NCBI GenBank assembly: GCA_023334545.1
Contig: JAADVB010000154.1
Span: 1 to 45,878 of the forward strand
DNA length: 45,878 bases
From: Salisapilia sapeloensis
Lineage: Eukaryota; Oomycota; Peronosporomycetes; Peronosporales; Salisapiliaceae
Direction: 5' to 3'
The stretch's first letter is position 1; each line of letters starts with the position of its first letter. Below, one piece after another: positions 3,928-45,878 of this stretch. Below the pieces are notes generated by a model. It saw only the letters and a program-made list of their open reading frames with translations, was not told the DNA's origin and ran no database searches. The position numbers and the translations under genes are program-made.

Positions 3928-5049
3928 ATTTAGGTAAGCTGTTCCTGGTAAATGTCTTGACCGACTGCGCTTGGTTGCGGACGCGTTTGGATGGAGCGAA
4001 AGCCATTCATCTTTTCAGCCAATCAAATTTAAAATTGTTCTGAACTATGTTGTTAGAAACAGGAGGTGGTTTCGTTGAGGTCCGAGGTTGCTATTTGGTA
4101 ACTTTTATTGACAAGTTAGATGGGACGGAAAGGTAGGAGGAAGTGTACTCATATTCAATGAGTTGATGGGAAATGCATACATCTACATAAATTATACTTC
4201 AAACGGTAAATTGAAGTCAAAAGTGATGTTTGTTTCGAGACTATGAAAGCTTGTATGTTCGAGCAATGACGGCGTGTTTGTATGGATTAAAAAGTAAAAG
4301 TAAAGTTTATTCTTGTTCATAAATTTCAACATCGATGAGGAATAGTTCTTTCTTTGTTTTGAGTACAAGATAAAAATAGTCATTCGATGTGAAACTCCTT
4401 CTTCATTCATAGTAAGAGCCATTCGGCCCATCAAACGCAGCTTCAGAGACTTGATCTCGGATGCTTGAATGCGACAACTACGAAAACTCGGAACAATAGA
4501 TCAGGTAAATGCCCCAGATACGGAAAGCTACCTTGTAGTGAATGAAAACCAGACGATCTATTCATAGCCAAGACATTGGTTAAAGCAAAATACTCCGCAT
4601 ATTTGGCATTGCAGTGTCAAATGTGACCGACTCAGTATCAGAGGGCGTATAAAATGCGATGAGAAGACTGATAAGGAAAAGGAAGGTCTATGGATCGACA
4701 CTAATGAGGGAAAATGAGCTCCATCAAGTTCCAGTTGAGTTGTTAGTGAAAACACTGCAATTGGTATGCACCTTTATGAGGTGAATGAGTCCTCTAGAGT
4801 GGTCTTGGCTATAGCTCTGATTTGATTTGGATGAAAGCTTAATTACAATCAAGGATACACACAAAGCATGAGGAAGAATGATATCCGAGTCGAGGATATC
4901 ACTCTAGTACCAGCTTTTAGTCATATATCACAATCCGGACGGATCCAATGAAATTTAATATGGATGAGTAAATTTCAAAAAGTGCTCAGAAGCAGTGTCG
5001 GTTCTGCACCTAGTTGTTGGAAATAAGTTGGTGTTAAGCAATATGGTGT
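3928..5049. other. RPL14 upstream region and spacer
   Basis: The first about 110 bases upstream of the RPL14 ATG contain a CCAAT-type element (gattggct read on the minus strand, near 4018-4025), consistent with an RPL14 promoter. The remainder is AT-rich; short open frames on the minus strand (4192-4434, 4558-4755) have no motif or composition that sets them apart from chance. Confidence 0.45.
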
Positions 5050-5340
5050 ATGCAGCTTTATAAATCTTTCAAACTGTTGCACTCTCACAAAACAAAAGAA
5101 TTCGACTTGATTACGACTTTATCTTCTGAGTGGACATTGCCATCCATAACGGCAGCTACTGAAGAGCTGCTGTCGAGGTCTCCACCATCGTCGACCAAAT
5201 TTGATTATGCTTATCTTTACATAGGTGACAATGACAATCAGTTTGGTGAAGTAATGCAAGCAATACTTGACTTCCAGACAAAAGCTCTTCGGGTCATTTA
5301 GGCTTCGCTACCACTAGACGTTGAAGCATTTGGAAGTCGT
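5050..5340 (+). pseudogene. Possible decayed coding fragment, unrecognised
   Basis: A frame opening at ATG 5050 runs 83 codons to a TAG at 5299-5301. The same frame then continues in protein-like composition for about 15 more codons before a second stop. It has mixed hydrophobic and charged residues, with an FDYAYLYIGDNDNQFG segment that looks more coding-like than the surrounding DNA. No domain is recognised. It could be a relic of a larger gene or a chance ORF. Confidence 0.2.
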
Positions 5341-5911
5341 GTCTTCGACTGAGGCTATGGGAATCCTTTTTAGATTATAACAGCTTTCGAATTCTTGCAA
5401 ACTAATTGAAGAGATCGTTCATCCGTTATTATTTTAATGACAGCATGATCCTGCTTGTCACGAGAAGAGGTAAAACCCGGCCATCTGGATAAAAAATTAG
5501 GCTATATAACTCCTTTAAAGCGTTTGGAGGTGGGGAAGAGGCTGCGACCCATCATGAGGTCAGAACAAGCAGTTTGATCTGAAGTCACAGATAGACAGAT
5601 CATTCCATTGTCTCACTTTCATGGTCCCAGTCATTACTCGAGATATAGCGGGTGCATGCTGATTGCTCGGCCACTTCTCCAGTCGATACATCGCTGACTT
5701 AGCTAGCACTGGAGAATTATGCAGTGATATGGAACTGCGTTATGATAAAGGATAGTTCATCAGGGGTACATACGGCCAATTCTTAAACATCATTCGCACC
5801 CCTCTTCTCCTCAATTAAAAGTTGTGCATATCAAATGCAAATAAAAAGGCTTGCGTTCGAGAGAGATACATTTGATTGTAGTTTAATGATGTCTATATTC
5901 CCAGCAATAAA

Positions 5912-30310: not shown

Positions 30311-31349
30311 ATGGTCAACTATCTGGGTTTCCTCGCAGTAGCATCCACACTGCTGTCGACTGCACTCGCTCAATACGCAGCTCCTGGCGCATGCTCTGGC
30401 ATTTGTGTTAACACGCATGACCCATCCGTCGTGCGCCGCGAAAGTGATGGCACTTACTTCCGTTTCAGCACCGGAGGCAAGATTGCAGTTCACTCTGCTC
30501 CAGGTATGCTGGCGACATTTACACCGCCCTATTGATCACATTGCTAATCAACTTAAATATTATGTAGACATTAGTGGACCGTGGAAGTACGAAGGTGCAG
30601 CGATTCCTGACGGTTCGATCATCAACCTTAAAGGCCGAGATGACTTGTGGGCTCCGGATGTCACGCTTATTGGAGACACCTACTATCTTTACTACACTGT
30701 GAGCTCGTTTGGTTCGCAAAACTCTGCTATTGGTTACGCCACCTCTCCTACAATGGATGTTGGCTCATGGACGGATCATGGCAGCACTGGCATTCAAAGC
30801 GGAGCAGGCAAACCATACAATGCGATCGATCCAGCTTTGATTTGGGCAAACGAACAGTTCCACATGACATTTGGCAGTTTCTGGGACGGCATCTACCAAG
30901 CGTCGATGGCTAATCCGCCAACAAAGGTAACTGGATCGGCCCACCAAGTTGCTCTGGAACCAGTTACGACTGCTGTGGAAGGCCCTTACGTCTTTACCTG
31001 GGGAGACAACTTCTACCTGTTCTTCTCGGAAGGAAAATGCTGTGGCTTCGACACTGACATGCCAGCGAAAGGAAAGGAGTATAAGATCATGGTATGCCGC
31101 TCCAGAGACCCGACCAGCGGTTTCGTTGATGCGAATGGCAGGGATTGCCGAAACGGTGGTGGTACTGTGGTGCTCGAGAGTCATGACAACATCTACGGAC
31201 CTGGCGGCCAAGGTGTCACGATGGACTCCCAGTACGGCCCTATTCTCTATTATCACTACGTTGACACCAACATCGGATACGCGGACGGTGACAAACGCTT
31301 CGGATGGAACAAGCTTGACTTTTCGAGTGGATGGCCGGTGGCCTTGTAA
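30311..31349 (+). CDS. Secreted GH43 endo-1,5-alpha-L-arabinanase
   Basis: This glycoside hydrolase family 43 enzyme is predicted to cut the arabinan side chains of pectin. Exons 30311-30503 and 30568-31349 join across a 64-nt intron to 324 aa. A signal peptide ([20 protein letters not shown]) precedes the five-bladed beta-propeller. Candidate catalytic acids are in their usual contexts: D37 in NTHDPSVV (general base), D152 in NAIDPALIW (pKa modulator) and E202 in AVEGPYVF (general acid). [20 protein letters not shown] and [11 protein letters not shown] are typical of arabinanases. Near the end [19 protein letters not shown] supplies a likely calcium or structural His. It lies 650 bp upstream of, and in the same direction as, the LPMO-like/pectin lyase gene. 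Confidence 0.92.
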
Positions 31350-31999
31350 GCTTTAGAAAATGTCATTTTCACTTGGTTGAGGCATTCAAGCACATTGAGA
31401 AATACAACTTATCTTTAGTGTTGAAAAGCTTCCTTTCATTATTAGATGGCATGCAGTATTCTTCACTATCTTATTTGCTCAAGCTGTGCTGAGATACTCT
31501 TCTGTAATCTTTCCTGAAAGCTATAAATGTTCTACGCCATCTTATAAACGATCGTTGCTTTCATTTGTTATTCAGTCATCTGGTCATCATTCGGATCTTT
31601 GGTAGGTACCTGCATTGTTATCGATGTATCTGTCGTTATCTAGCTTACTTTATGTTCGCAAGCATCGTCGCCAGACTTCACATGAAGCCTGCCTTTGACC
31701 GTCTACTCCATTTGAGATGAGGTCAATTGTCAAAACGTCAAAAGTATCAGCTCGCGGTCAATCTTGTCAATCAAGATGCTTCCCAAGAAACAGCTGTGTA
31801 TAACGCAAGACCACTTGCTTGGATACGAAGATACGAGGCAGTATGATGCCAAACATCAATAATCATGATCGAAGTGCTGTTGATCGCAGCAGTGACCAAA
31901 CAACCACGTGGAAATAGAGAAGGACGTGAAAGCGCTGTTGTGACTTAACTTCTCACTTTTCATTTCGCGAGCTTCGCCGTACGCCGACTGTCACTTGGA
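31350..31999. other. Spacer between the two pectin-active genes
   Basis: About 650 bp with no ORF of note. It holds the GH43 3' region and the promoter of the next gene, with an initiator at 31951-31966. Confidence 0.5.
31951..31966 (+). promoter_or_regulatory. Oomycete-type initiator of the LPMO-pectin lyase gene
   Basis: The sequence tctcacttttcatttc matches the oomycete initiator GCTCATTYYNCAWTTT at nearly every position, about 33 nt before the ATG. It implies a short 5' leader and supports the annotated start. Confidence 0.6.
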
Positions 32000-33802
32000 A
32001 TGAAGACCGGATTTGCTACTTTCGGGGTGGCCGCTTCGGCTATTGCTGCTCTCTCATTGCTACCAGAGGTAGAAGGCCATGCCTATCTCATCTCTCCTCC
32101 GCCGAATTGGGCAGTCCCCAATCACAAGGACTGGTACAATCCACTAGCCTTCCTCGAAGGCTCTGGCGTGCAGACGTCCGATGATTTGCCTGGATTCATG
32201 CGAGCTCACGGTTACGCGACGTTGCGTGACATGTTGGACGATGAGAACCTGTACAACGTTGACCCAGGTCTCGACTGGCACTGCGGTCTCACGACCACGG
32301 ACACTCCAGTCCCGATCCCGGACACGAATTCTCTTCGCCTCACGGGCTACACGCACGACGGTCCGTGTGAAGTTTGGCTTGACGACACGCTTGTGCAGTC
32401 TGGTCAGAATTGTCACGCAGAGTTCCCAGGCAAGGGACAGGAGTTTGACTACAGCGCCTGTGGCGATGGCTGCATGCTGCGCTGGTACTGGCTCGGTATC
32501 CGTTACTTGAAGAACCAGTGGTCGTGGCAAGTGTACAAGAACTGCGTTCTGCTTGGCAACGGCAACACGGGAGGACGTGCAGCCGCTCCTGCTCCTTTCG
32601 GCCAAGAAGCGCAAGCTCTTCCGGCAGCTCCTGCACAGAAAGCTGCTGAACCTGTCGCGGATGTCATGGCTCAAGGCGCTTCGAACTACGTCATTGGAGA
32701 CGCTCCGGGCTATGCAGTAGGTACGACTGGAGGTGCTGGTGGCAAAGAAGTCACTCCCAACACGATCGAAGAGTTAAAGAACTACTTGTACGCGGATGAG
32801 CCGTTGGTCATCCTCATTACGAAGAAGTTTGACTTCACCGGTACGGAAGGCTCCAAGACTGACAAGGTGTGTGCTTCCCACTACTCTGTTCAGTGTCCCG
32901 ACCAGGCTCAGTACGTGATTATCGACGGCGACATTGGAAACACTGGTGGATGTGATGGTGACTACACCCAACAGGACTTCACGTGGGACTTGGCTGGCCA
33001 GACTGCTTTGCGTGTCAAGGGCGACAAGACTGTCCGTGGTATCGGCCAAAGCGGTGAGATCGTCGGCAAGGGACTCAAGGTCGTCGGTGACAACGTTATT
33101 ATCCAAAACGTGTACATTCACGACATCAACCCTCAATTTGTGTGGGGTGGTGATGCCATCGCCATTGACGGTGGAAACCAAAAGCCAGTGTCGAACGTGT
33201 GGATTGACCACGTCCGTATCAAGAACATTGGTCGTCAAATGATCGTTACGCACTACGGTGGAGCGAGATCGACGACTGTCTCGAACAGTGAATTCGATGG
33301 TACCACCGCATACTCTGCTTCGTGTGATGGACGTCACTACTGGACCTTCCTCATCTACGGCACGCAGACCAGCATCAGTCTCCTCGGCAACTACGTCCAC
33401 GACACTTCTGGACGATCTCCCAAGGCCCAGGGTAACGAAGGCCAGCCGACGTACGTGCATGTTGCGAACAACTACTGGGCCAACAGTGCTGGTGTCTTTG
33501 AGCTTTCGGAGGACGCTTACGTTCTTGCGGAAGGCAATGTCTTCGAGTCGGACGAGTGGTCGGACCAGTCGAAGAGCAACTTCTTCTTTGCTACGGATGG
33601 TGCGGACTGTTCGGCCCTCGGACGTGACTGTGTTGCGAACCAACTTTCCGGTTCAAGTGGCGTCCAGAATGTGAACGGTGCCGCTGTCCTGTCTGGTATT
33701 TCGTCTCAATACAGTGTCAAGAACTACTCGCCAACGAGCCCGAAGAAGCTGTCTACCGGATCGTCTTTCTTTGGTGTGAACGGCGTGGAGCCATCGCTGT
33801 AA
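32000..33802 (+). CDS. Secreted LPMO-like (AA17-like) / pectin lyase fusion
   Basis: This is an intronless 600-aa secreted protein with two predicted enzyme domains. A signal peptide (1-26, ending VEG) leaves His27 as the mature N-terminus (HAYLISPPPNW), as in lytic polysaccharide monooxygenases, whose N-terminal histidine chelates copper. Domain 1 (27-185) has YTHDGPCEVW with H119 as the likely second copper ligand, cysteine pairs, and a WQVYKNC end with Y179 as a candidate axial Tyr; it resembles the AA17 family of oomycetes, which oxidises pectin. A Pro/Ala linker (190-225) leads to a PL1 pectin lyase (about 238-600): FDFTGTEGSKT, FVWGGDAIAIDGG, VWIDHVRIKNIGRQ, GRSPKAQGN (candidate catalytic R472) and YVLAEGNVF, as in fungal pectin lyases. 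Domain order and lyase identity are secure; the AA17 assignment is by motif. Confidence 0.85.
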   Translation: MKTGFATFGVAASAIAALSLLPEVEGHAYLISPPPNWAVPNHKDWYNPLAFLEGSGVQTSDDLPGFMRAHGYATLRDMLDDENLYNVDPGLDWHCGLTTTDTPVPIPDTNSLRLTGYTHDGPCEVWLDDTLVQSGQNCHAEFPGKGQEFDYSACGDGCMLRWYWLGIRYLKNQWSWQVYKNCVLLGNGNTGGRAAAPAPFGQEAQALPAAPAQKAAEPVADVMAQGASNYVIGDAPGYAVGTTGGAGGKEVTPNTIEELKNYLYADEPLVILITKKFDFTGTEGSKTDKVCASHYSVQCPDQAQYVIIDGDIGNTGGCDGDYTQQDFTWDLAGQTALRVKGDKTVRGIGQSGEIVGKGLKVVGDNVIIQNVYIHDINPQFVWGGDAIAIDGGNQKPVSNVWIDHVRIKNIGRQMIVTHYGGARSTTVSNSEFDGTTAYSASCDGRHYWTFLIYGTQTSISLLGNYVHDTSGRSPKAQGNEGQPTYVHVANNYWANSAGVFELSEDAYVLAEGNVFESDEWSDQSKSNFFFATDGADCSALGRDCVANQLSGSSGVQNVNGAAVLSGISSQYSVKNYSPTSPKKLSTGSSFFGVNGVEPSL

Positions 33803-35071
33803 GATCGAATGCGTCTGATAAATAAGCAAAGGATGTTTTCATGATGACTTCAATACACAAATGTTAATTTGCAAGTAGTTGTTTCTTGGCCAAGATTTGA
33901 ACATGTACGCTTCATTACTGCTTATAAGATTTAAACTATCAGTAAGAATAGATCTACAAACCAGTACGCTTCATCCGTGGCTGCACTACTCGCCAAATTT
34001 TTTCAACACATCCCGGCAATGCCCATGTGTCCATGCAAAAATGTGCTCTCTGTAAATCGAATGAAGACGTTGTTACACATAGAAACCTTGACGACGTATG
34101 CTACTTGATTGGAAGCGCCAGCAGATATAGCAGCATTTCCGATACTCTAGCTTTTCCGCATTCAAATGGATTCATGTTTTGTAGGTGCGAGATGTCGAGT
34201 CGACTGGAAGTAGATTGTTCGCCTTTAATACGCAGGTAGAATTTTTCGTTTAACACTTTGGTTTGCCCATCGCCTGGTCGCGCCTGACTCTACCAACGTG
34301 GATGTCTTTTCGGTTTAACAATTCGTACGTGAGTGCAGGACAGCGTATGGGAATTCTGCAAAACTTTTCAAAAGGATTAGCTACCGACTGCGCTGTTTCT
34401 ACTCTCTATGAAAAGATCAGCTAGAGATTTCCAATAGCCTATGATAAGGCAAAGTCGGAGGCAATGCGTATGCACATTGCGCATTCGCTTTCGACTTTGT
34501 ATCGTCGAGATCAGTTGACTGCGCGAGAAGTTGCTTTCTAGTAGCTTCAAGTTCGTACATAGACCATCACTTGAATCGATCCTCCACTTTAAACGTCGGC
34601 AGATGGGAGATCATCTGGAACGAGTGTTTCGTAAGCGTGCTTAGACGACACCAAGCAGAATGCTCTCCATTTGTATCCGCATGATCTCCACTCGCTCCCA
34701 TGCCTCTAACCACCGTCGTAGACTAGACCATACCTCCATCTGCATCTTCCTCCTACCTCTTCCCCACCACAAACATGCCAACGTCGATTGCGTTTCCAAA
34801 GTGTACATGCGTTCATAAAAATGCAACTAGAGTCCAATACCTATCACCTCCCTCTTCGTTCAGATGACCGCCGAAACCAGGTGCCTGACGAGTACGCGGT
34901 GTCTGAAGCGATCCGCGTCGTACTTGAGCGAATGAAAACCTGATAATCCACAAGTATCTTGCACTTTGTATACTGGCAAGTAAAGATCTTGGAACTTGGA
35001 CGTTGGAGCTCACAACAACTTTTGCGCCGGAGGAGACAGATCCCAGCTCTGCAACTCGAGGAGGTGGAAAG
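33803..35071. other. Spacer upstream of pyruvate carboxylase
   Basis: About 1.27 kb with no supported gene. A short plus-strand frame (34027-34239) has several cysteines but no signal peptide or motif. The frame immediately upstream of the carboxylase is open to 35003 without an ATG. Confidence 0.5.
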
Positions 35072-44613: not shown

Positions 44614-45878
44614 GACGAAGATGGAGCGTAATGGAAACGAATGGATAATAGTTTGCAACGATTAAGTCGCACCCATCTAGCGCGTACTGCTGCTGCTGCT
44701 GAGATCGTGAATGGTGAACTTATGCCGTGGGAGAAATAGATGGTTTATATTGGCACGTAAATATCGCAATGGTGTGAAAGCATGGTACTATGGTTCAGAG
44801 GGGATAAATCATGCCGGAGGAAGGTACTCTTGGAGTCGACGGAGTATCTAGTTTTAGAGGAGTTGAGGTTGTGTTCGTTGAGAGCAGAATCGGGTATAAT
44901 GCAAGGCATACTAGGGATTAAGAAAGCGAACATGTGAAAACTGTAATAGAAATCAATGCCTACGTCTTTGGTGGTTCGTCCTAATCGTGGCTCGCTATCT
45001 ACCTTTCCATTTCTATCCGCGTACATCGTCCATTCCTTTGTCATTTTTGGCGGGAATCGTGTCGAGCGTATCGTGTTTGATCGTCGAAAGCCATTCAGGT
45101 TGAAGTTCCATTCGATTTACTTGCGCTAGTGAGCTCATCGTCATTTTATTGGGATGGTGTACTGTGTGAGTCGCAAATACTGCCCAATTATTCCGTCTAC
45201 TACTGTACTACGCCTGTTCCGAAATAAAAGCGAACAGCTCGCTAGTACAAGTAAAGCGAAGAGCTCACCAAACCTTTCGCGCGCTTTTTCAAACGTGCAC
45301 ATCTCGAGTACCAGGCGTGAGTGGAAATCTTCTCGAAGATCTTTTCCTCATGATTTCTGTAAAGATGAAGACAAAGGTGTACTAAAATCAAGCAAGGATA
45401 TGTTCATTTGTAGTAGTGAAAGTTTTATAATCGCGCACAAATTACCAGTAGTCTTTGTCCATGCTGACCTCTACAGACCTGCAGAATTATCCGACCTTTT
45501 AGATGATCGGACGAAAAATATATAAAAACTGGACGGCCGAGACATCAGTCCTCAAGACATGAACTTACAAAAGGATTATTGACAACTTTGACTCCTAATA
45601 CATGTATATACAGGACAATGTCGGCAACTTTGATACCCCCGAAATGAAATTCATATCTTCTCTATGGTTTCACAGATTTTTGTACGATATCAATCTAAGT
45701 GGTGGTTCAAGTGATGCATCATATAAAAAGATGACTGTACTCGTACCTGGGATAATAGAGACTCTGGACCGTAGCCCTCGAAACACGCACAAGAATGGCA
45801 ATTCAAAATACGGAATGGTTTTCCTTAAGAAACAAATGACCTACGTGCCGAGACACACTACCGTCGGAAACCTTAGGC
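44614..45878. other. Right-edge spacer with a possible small ORF
   Basis: Upstream of the secreted gene lies a short CTG run (44687-44701). An open frame at 45154-45525 (+, 123 codons, basic and Ser-rich, ending in RPAELSDLLDDRTKNI) has no recognised domain or signal peptide and is not called as a gene. A minus-strand frame at 44745-45044 looks like chance. The last about 120 bases resemble the 3' flank of the secreted gene. Confidence 0.4.
45760..45878 (-). other. Probable 3' flank of a second copy of the secreted gene
   Basis: Read on the minus strand from the window edge, the DNA gives a TAA (45873-45875) followed by ggtttccgacggtagtgtg and tctcggcac. This parallels the TGA of the secreted gene followed by ggctttcagcgatagtgtg and cctcggcac. 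Similarity continues past a ccattcttg block for about 100 bases. The simplest reading is that a tandem duplicate, with its coding part outside the window, ends here. Confidence 0.5.

What the first reader, a model, noticed from the sequence alone, without database searches (positions are those of the whole stretch)
32000..33802. One secreted polypeptide joining an LPMO-like oxidase to a pectin lyase
The mature protein starts with a histidine in an LPMO-style context (HAYLISPPPNW), has a second His in YTHDGPCEVW and ends the domain at WQVYKNC, then a Pro/Ala linker, then a full PL1 pectin lyase. AA17 LPMOs of oomycetes act on pectin, so both halves would hit the same polymer: oxidative and eliminative cleavage in one enzyme. 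I do not recall this architecture being described. Domain order is seen directly; copper chemistry is inferred.
Basis: partly seen in the sequence, partly recalled or inferred. Interest (0 to 1): 0.85.

Follow-up and report, generated by a model that had tools for sequence, protein, structure and literature searches.

The report
LPMO–pectin lyase two-in-one enzyme
An oomycete (water mould) gene encodes one secreted protein that joins a copper-oxidase-type pectin cutter to a pectin lyase, so two different chemistries against the plant cell-wall glue pectin appear to be carried on a single chain, a combination not seen in the related proteins examined here.

The parts
32000..32077 (+). signal peptide (residues 1-26), cleavage expected before H27
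   Evidence: hydrophobic leader, max 9-residue Kyte-Doolittle mean 2.30; family-wide start of the mature domain at this His. No signal-peptide program was run.
32078..32554 (+). AA17-type LPMO domain (residues 27-185)
32078..32080 (+). H27, N-terminal brace histidine of the mature protein
   Evidence: aligned with H1 of 6z5y
32354..32356 (+). H119, second brace histidine
   Evidence: aligned with the corresponding His of 6z5y
32534..32536 (+). Y179, axial tyrosine position
   Evidence: aligned with Tyr of 6z5y
32555..32677 (+). Ala/Pro-rich linker (residues 186-226); the part without a DNA match to either parent paralogue is about 32556-32648
   Evidence: DNA match to C41 AA17 ends at 32555, to C189 PL1 begins at 32649; no Cys, 76% A/P/G/S/T/Q/E
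32678..33799 (+). PL1 pectin lyase domain (residues 227-600); stop codon 33800-33802
   Evidence: 1idk E 2.7e-63; PF00544 E 3.9e-09
33152..33154 (+). D385, equivalent of pectin lyase A D154
   Evidence: of 146 aligned PL1 stretches from 123 sequences 136 D, 10 gaps
33233..33235 (+). R412, equivalent of pectin lyase A R176
   Evidence: 139 R, 7 gaps of 146
33413..33415 (+). R472, equivalent of pectin lyase A R236 (catalytic role recalled)
   Evidence: 141 R, 5 gaps of 146
31951..31966 (+). possible oomycete Inr/FPR-like start-site element 34-49 bases before the ATG (weak)
   Evidence: 13 of 16 to a consensus that is recalled; 31 of 200 shuffles of the 2.3 kb reached 13
30311..31349 (+). neighbouring gene, not part of the polypeptide: secreted GH43 endo-1,5-alpha-arabinanase-like enzyme with a 64-nt intron (30504-30567), 650 bases upstream of the fusion
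   Evidence: PF04616 E 5e-30 and 1uv4 arabinanase E 5.1e-34, both for the unspliced frame 30405-31346; spliced frame 324 aa; only PF04616 match found in the held genome

Best explanation
The gene is a real, lineage-specific fusion of an AA17 LPMO gene with a PL1 pectin lyase gene in an oomycete. It encodes a secreted bicatalytic pectinase. After signal-peptide removal the free N-terminal H27 with H119 (and Y179 axial) would hold copper, and the reduced enzyme with O2 or H2O2 would oxidatively cut galacturonan. The C-terminal pectin lyase, tethered by a flexible linker where AA17 of P. infestans carries a disordered tail, would cut neighbouring, methyl-esterified stretches by beta-elimination. 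Tethering keeps the two cutters on the same pectin patch: each creates new access or chain ends for the other. Shown: the continuous frame, the AA17 fold (predicted), both sets of key residues, the unfused paralogues, the pairwise selection, the single junction. Inferred: copper, activity, pectin as LPMO substrate, synergy.
For: One 600-codon frame with one signal peptide. AA17 by sequence and predicted fold. Brace residues aligned with 6z5y. Of 52 columns conserved at 90% in 58 relatives the fusion keeps 48, the unfused C41 paralogue 47, so no sign of decay. Pectin lyase by sequence with D385/R412/R472, W382 and W448 kept. The closest relative of each half is a separate gene in the same genome: AA17 at C41, 72%, and PL1 at C189, 80%. 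Homology breaks on either side of the linker. Pairwise dN/dS 0.141 (AA17 half vs C41) and 0.140 (PL1 half vs C189). Junction occurs once. Precedent for such a tether: Jd1381, AA10-CBM5-GH18, more efficient than any combination of its separate domains (PMC10154629 passages). AA17 members act on pectin (PMC8393829 passages).
Against: No transcript, read or protein evidence. No second species with the fusion. 6z5y branches outside the 100-row AA17 clade that holds this domain and is about 31% identical, so function is carried over a long distance. The codon-usage score of the 31-codon linker core does not by itself favour the frame: +0.30 bits per codon in frame, +0.40 in frame +1 and +0.42 in one reverse frame. 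The AA17 half has more own changes than its C41 sister (means 9.7 and 4.6 over 58 outgroups, binomial p 0.18; end branches 0.28 and 0.09). Two tryptophans of the PelA cleft (W66, W81; numbers recalled) are not kept.
Confidence: 0.74

Rival explanations
1. The fused chain is made but is a delivery form: the linker is cut by proteases outside the cell and the two enzymes act as separate proteins, so co-secretion and not tethering is what is selected.
For: Ala/Pro-rich, Cys-free linker; both halves look complete by themselves.
Against: None direct: no processing motif was looked for. Disordered Ser/Pro/Thr-rich extensions after the catalytic domain are reported for P. infestans AA17 (PMC8615602 passage), so a flexible stretch here needs no processing to explain it.
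Confidence: 0.12
2. The AA17 half is no longer a catalyst but a pectin-binding module for the lyase, as loss of the brace has happened elsewhere in AA17.
For: AA17-like proteins that have lost both brace histidines but keep the predicted fold exist, including the copy beside the C189 pectin lyase in this genome, so non-copper roles are plausible.
Against: In the fusion itself H27, H119 and Y179 are all kept, H27 is at the expected mature N-terminus and 48 of 52 conserved columns are intact.
Confidence: 0.08
3. Assembly chimera of two separate genes.
For: No reads could be examined.
Against: The frame is kept across the joint; the held genome shows no near-identical second copy of either half or of the junction (next best 72%, 80% and 78%); the PL1 half lacks a start with a signal peptide of its own while its C189 paralogue has one.
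Confidence: 0.04
4. A variant of the main reading, on history only: the fusion is the older state. The common ancestor of the C62 and C189 PL1 genes already carried a fused or extended N-terminus, and C189 lost its AA17 part, keeping the Ser/Pro-rich stretch.
For: C62 and C189 share the stretch VAD..AQ.ASNYV just before the lyase, which the third PL1 (C26) lacks; C189 PL1 carries a long Ser/Pro-rich region after its own signal peptide.
Against: C189 PL1 has its own signal peptide and no recognisable AA17 sequence; the AA17 half's nearest relative is C41, unfused.
Confidence: 0.2

Closest known systems
AA17 LPMOs of oomycetes (P. infestans 6z5y; P. sojae 8s6s, 8s71)
   Different: About 31% identity, outside the clade of this domain; the solved chains carry no lyase. 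AA17 are reported with a disordered extension (P. infestans, PMC8615602 passage) or, in Saprolegniales, typically with cellulose-binding domains (PMC8393829 passage).
PL1 pectin lyases (Aspergillus PelA 1idk, PelB 1qcx; oomycete pectin lyases)
   Same: Sequence; D154/R176/R236 equivalents.
   Different: Here the lyase is the second catalytic domain of a chain that starts with an LPMO. W66 and W81 of PelA (numbers recalled) are not kept; at these positions the other oomycete lyases aligned are mostly not Trp either.
Jd1381 (JdLPMO10A), AA10-CBM5-GH18
   Same: N-terminal LPMO joined to a second catalytic CAZyme domain for the same polymer (PMC10154629 passages).
   Different: Bacterial, chitin, AA10 plus hydrolase plus CBM; here AA17 plus lyase, pectin (inferred), no CBM recognised by Pfam.
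AA15 LPMOs with GH9 or GH18 domains
   Same: LPMO plus a second catalytic domain (PMC8615602 passage).
   Different: Other LPMO family, hydrolase partners.

Membership tests
AA17 LPMO | sequence similarity to characterised or solved AA17 | tested here: met
   6z5y E 2.1e-21, 8s6s 3.3e-21, 8s71 8e-19. CAZy's own AA17 model was not available; Pfam and NCBIfam have no hit for this half.
AA17 LPMO | AA17 / LPMO fold | tested here: met
AA17 LPMO | histidine brace residues (His1, second His, axial Tyr) | tested here: met
   H27, H119, Y179 in the columns of 6z5y; 98 of 138 aligned domain rows, these two included, have H/H/Y. Met at residue level only: geometry and copper not measured.
AA17 LPMO | copper binding and oxidative cleavage of pectin | not testable with these tools
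   needs purified protein
PL1 pectin lyase | PL1 sequence family | tested here: met
   PF00544 36.9 bits over cut-off 24; 1idk E 2.7e-63
PL1 pectin lyase | pectin-lyase-type residues (Asp154, Arg176, Arg236 of PelA; role recalled) | tested here: met
   D385, R412, R472
PL1 pectin lyase | beta-elimination of methyl-esterified pectin | not testable with these tools
   needs assay
Bicatalytic LPMO enzyme (Jd1381 type) | LPMO and a second catalytic CAZyme domain in one secreted chain | tested here: met
   met at sequence level: one frame, one signal peptide; transcript and protein not tested
Bicatalytic LPMO enzyme (Jd1381 type) | intramolecular synergy | not testable with these tools
   needs assay of full-length against separated domains

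The most novel reading that the evidence does not exclude
This is the first LPMO naturally fused to a polysaccharide lyase: a two-chemistry pectinase in which oxidation and beta-elimination are applied by one chain to one pectin patch, giving short galacturonides that are both oxidised and unsaturated and so may escape plant recognition. AA17 and PL1 would be coupled repeatedly in this lineage: here by fusion, and at C189 by a divergent gene pair with a copper-less AA17-like partner.
Probability: 0.3. Interest if true: 0.8.

Novelty: new variant of a known kind. Interest (0 to 1): 0.62.

Why it matters
A 2023 review, read in passages, says that only one bicatalytic LPMO enzyme had been characterised, a bacterial chitin enzyme (PMC10154629). 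A natural LPMO-lyase fusion would extend the principle to pectin and to eliminative cleavage, and would offer a direct test of whether AA17 oxidation and pectin lyase action help each other when tethered. It also points to an AA17 clade without a solved member in the PDB search made here as a good target for structure and substrate work.

Tried and rejected
Curated families: Pfam and NCBIfam gave no model for the AA17 half (a piece of the linker region matched Pfam Ribosomal_60s at E 0.44, below its cut-off, taken as chance), so membership rests on PDB chains, homologues and fold.

A joint alignment of AA17-only and PL1-only proteins with the full chain (A1) put lyases on top of the AA17 half; it was dropped and the AA17 half was folded alone. 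The lyase half and the full chain were not folded; the second folding job went to the brace-less protein P0175.

Promoter scan: the Inr/FPR-like match before the ATG is reached in 31 of 200 shuffles of the 2.3 kb. Linker codon usage does not single out the frame.

Synteny: outside the AA17/PL1 matches and a repeated stretch at 44868-45355 (plus one 40-residue tblastx match at 34448-34567), no shared flank between the window and the inspected pieces of C189 (10.0 kb), C41 (9.0 kb) and C26 (8.0 kb), so the mechanism of fusion is not resolved.

Genome-wide family counts are soft: the PF00544 search of the genome found only 1 of the 3 PL1 places that the protein search found, so absence of GH28 and CE8 and the single GH43 by the same method may be misses.

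Species: not identified. The best-scoring homologues are roughly 40-54% identical and come from Pythium, Globisporangium and Phytophthora or unnamed sources. Only the best 120 of 686 PL1 hits were listed and examined; the PL1 tree used 36 of these 120, the AA17 tree 120 of 138 domain rows (those with 125 residues or more). Homologue searches need shared 5-residue words and exclude proteins outside 0.55-1.75 times the query length.

Literature: 10 of 10 searches used. None of the listed titles or abstract starts reports an LPMO-lyase fusion; one search listed 40 of 133 papers and one search listed 10 of 396. Nine papers were opened, in passages only: PMC8615602, PMC8993506, PMC13224840, PMC8393829, PMC12537922, PMC13353379, PMC10154617, PMC7073968, PMC10154629. 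The founding AA17 paper (Sabbadin 2021, Science) was seen only as cited in these; the preference of pectin lyase for methyl-esterified pectin and the PelA residue numbers and roles are recalled.

Full report
Observation. The window carries one frame from ATG 32000 to the stop at 33800-33802 on the + strand, 600 codons without interruption, with an upstream in-frame stop at 31946. The protein starts with a hydrophobic leader and the next residue is H27. A 41-residue, Cys-free linker, 76% A/P/G/S/T/Q/E, separates two parts with six cysteines each.

Second half. Residues 222-600 hit pectin lyase A and B at E 5.1e-60 or better and pectate lyases only at 3.3e-06 and 2.2e-04. PF00544 scores 36.9 bits against a cut-off of 24. 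D154, R176 and R236 of PelA (numbers and roles recalled) correspond to D385, R412 and R472. In 146 aligned stretches from 123 PL1 sequences these three positions show no other residue, only 10, 7 and 5 gaps. W382 and W448 are kept as well; the positions of PelA W66 and W81 hold H294 and G317.

Parents and joint. The held genome (G000, 19.5 Mb, 452 contigs) has 11 AA17-like places and 3 PL1 places, counts that the tool calls lower bounds. The nearest AA17 is at C41 (72%, 281 aa, no lyase) and forms a starred pair with the fusion. The nearest lyase is at C189 (80%, own signal peptide and a Ser/Pro-rich stretch, no AA17), also a starred pair. DNA similarity to C41 ends at 32555 and to C189 begins at 32649. 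dN/dS is 0.141 for the AA17 half and 0.140 for the lyase half against these paralogues, with dS 1.21 and 0.88; pairwise values average over both copies. The junction region occurs once; its only other match is the 78% lyase part at C189. The third lyase (C26) lacks the stretch before the lyase that C62 and C189 share, so some N-terminal extension predates the C62/C189 split, and loss of AA17 at C189 remains possible.

Rarity. The AA17-side searches returned 11 proteins when lengths of 330-1050 aa were admitted and 103 at about 105-333 aa; the lyase-side search returned 686, of which 120 were listed. Of these 114 and 120, none carries the other domain at E 1e-3. Three database proteins join AA17 to a sulphate-transporter or FAD/NAD domain (P0007, P0008, P0009); I suspect merged gene models, but this was not tested. 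The fusion here needs no gene model, as it is one open frame.

Surroundings. A secreted GH43 gene (30311-31349, one 64-nt intron) whose best PDB match is an endo-1,5-alpha-arabinanase (E 5.1e-34) lies 650 bases upstream on the same strand; it is the only PF04616 match in the held genome. One PL3 and no GH28 or CE8 were found. These counts are soft: the assembly may be partial, and the same kind of search with PF00544 found only 1 of the 3 lyases. The near neighbourhood thus aims at pectin and its arabinan side chains.

Mechanism. From established LPMO chemistry the copper site needs the free N-terminal His, so an LPMO in a fusion must be N-terminal, as here. The lyase sits where the P. infestans AA17 has a disordered extension (PMC8615602 passage). 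The closest functional precedent is Jd1381 (AA10-CBM5-GH18), by 2023 the only bicatalytic LPMO enzyme characterised, whose full-length form was more efficient than any combination of its domains (PMC10154629 passages); AA15 enzymes with GH9 or GH18 are also known. AA17 members act on pectin and are numerous in plant-pathogenic oomycetes (PMC8393829 passages); P. infestans has 31 AA17 genes, of which one study found 25 expressed and 13 upregulated in infection (PMC8993506 passages). I infer that the fusion cuts pectin by two chemistries from one tethered chain. Copper, activity, substrate and synergy are not shown.

Literature and novelty. Searches for LPMO or (polysaccharide, pectin) monooxygenase together with pectin lyase or polysaccharide lyase, some with fusion words, listed no such enzyme (titles and abstract starts; nine papers of all searches opened, in passages). 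The library lacks most subscription journals. I call it a new variant of a known kind: a bicatalytic LPMO with a new partner class and, probably, a new substrate.

Noticed in passing
L003/L012 (G000:C189:about 4790-5485, minus strand); proteins P0175, P0171, P0181, P0192, P0009, P0189, P0197, P0201, P0206, P0198: AA17-like proteins in which both histidine-brace residues are replaced (Gly/Leu, Gln/Phe, Gln/Leu) while the Tyr is kept: 11 of 138 aligned domain rows; nine form one starred clade, and the one folded (P0175) keeps the AA17 fold. A conserved copper-less AA17 branch.
   Followed up: partly
L012 (G000:C189:5486-5871): A brace-less AA17-like gene and a pectin lyase gene (80% identical to the fusion's lyase) are divergent neighbours 386 bases apart, a second physical link of the two families in this genome.
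   Followed up: partly
window 30311-31349: Secreted endo-arabinanase-like GH43 gene with a 64-nt intron, 650 bases upstream of the fusion; the only PF04616 match found in the held genome.
   Followed up: partly
G000 as held: Three PL1 places and one PL3 place, but no GH28 and no CE8 match: a thin pectinase set, a partial assembly, or misses of the family search, which found only 1 of the 3 PL1 places.
   Followed up: no
window 44868-45355; L013 (G000:C26) 23-395 and 4783-5250: A stretch of about 0.4-0.5 kb of the window recurs twice (70-75%) on either side of the PL1 gene on C26; nature not examined.
   Followed up: no
P0141, P0142, P0144, P0167, P0188; P0151, P0154, P0155, P0166, P0169, P0197: AA17-like proteins are named 'thioredoxin reductase' or 'RxLR effector / RxLR-like protein' in public records, probably misannotations.
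   Followed up: no
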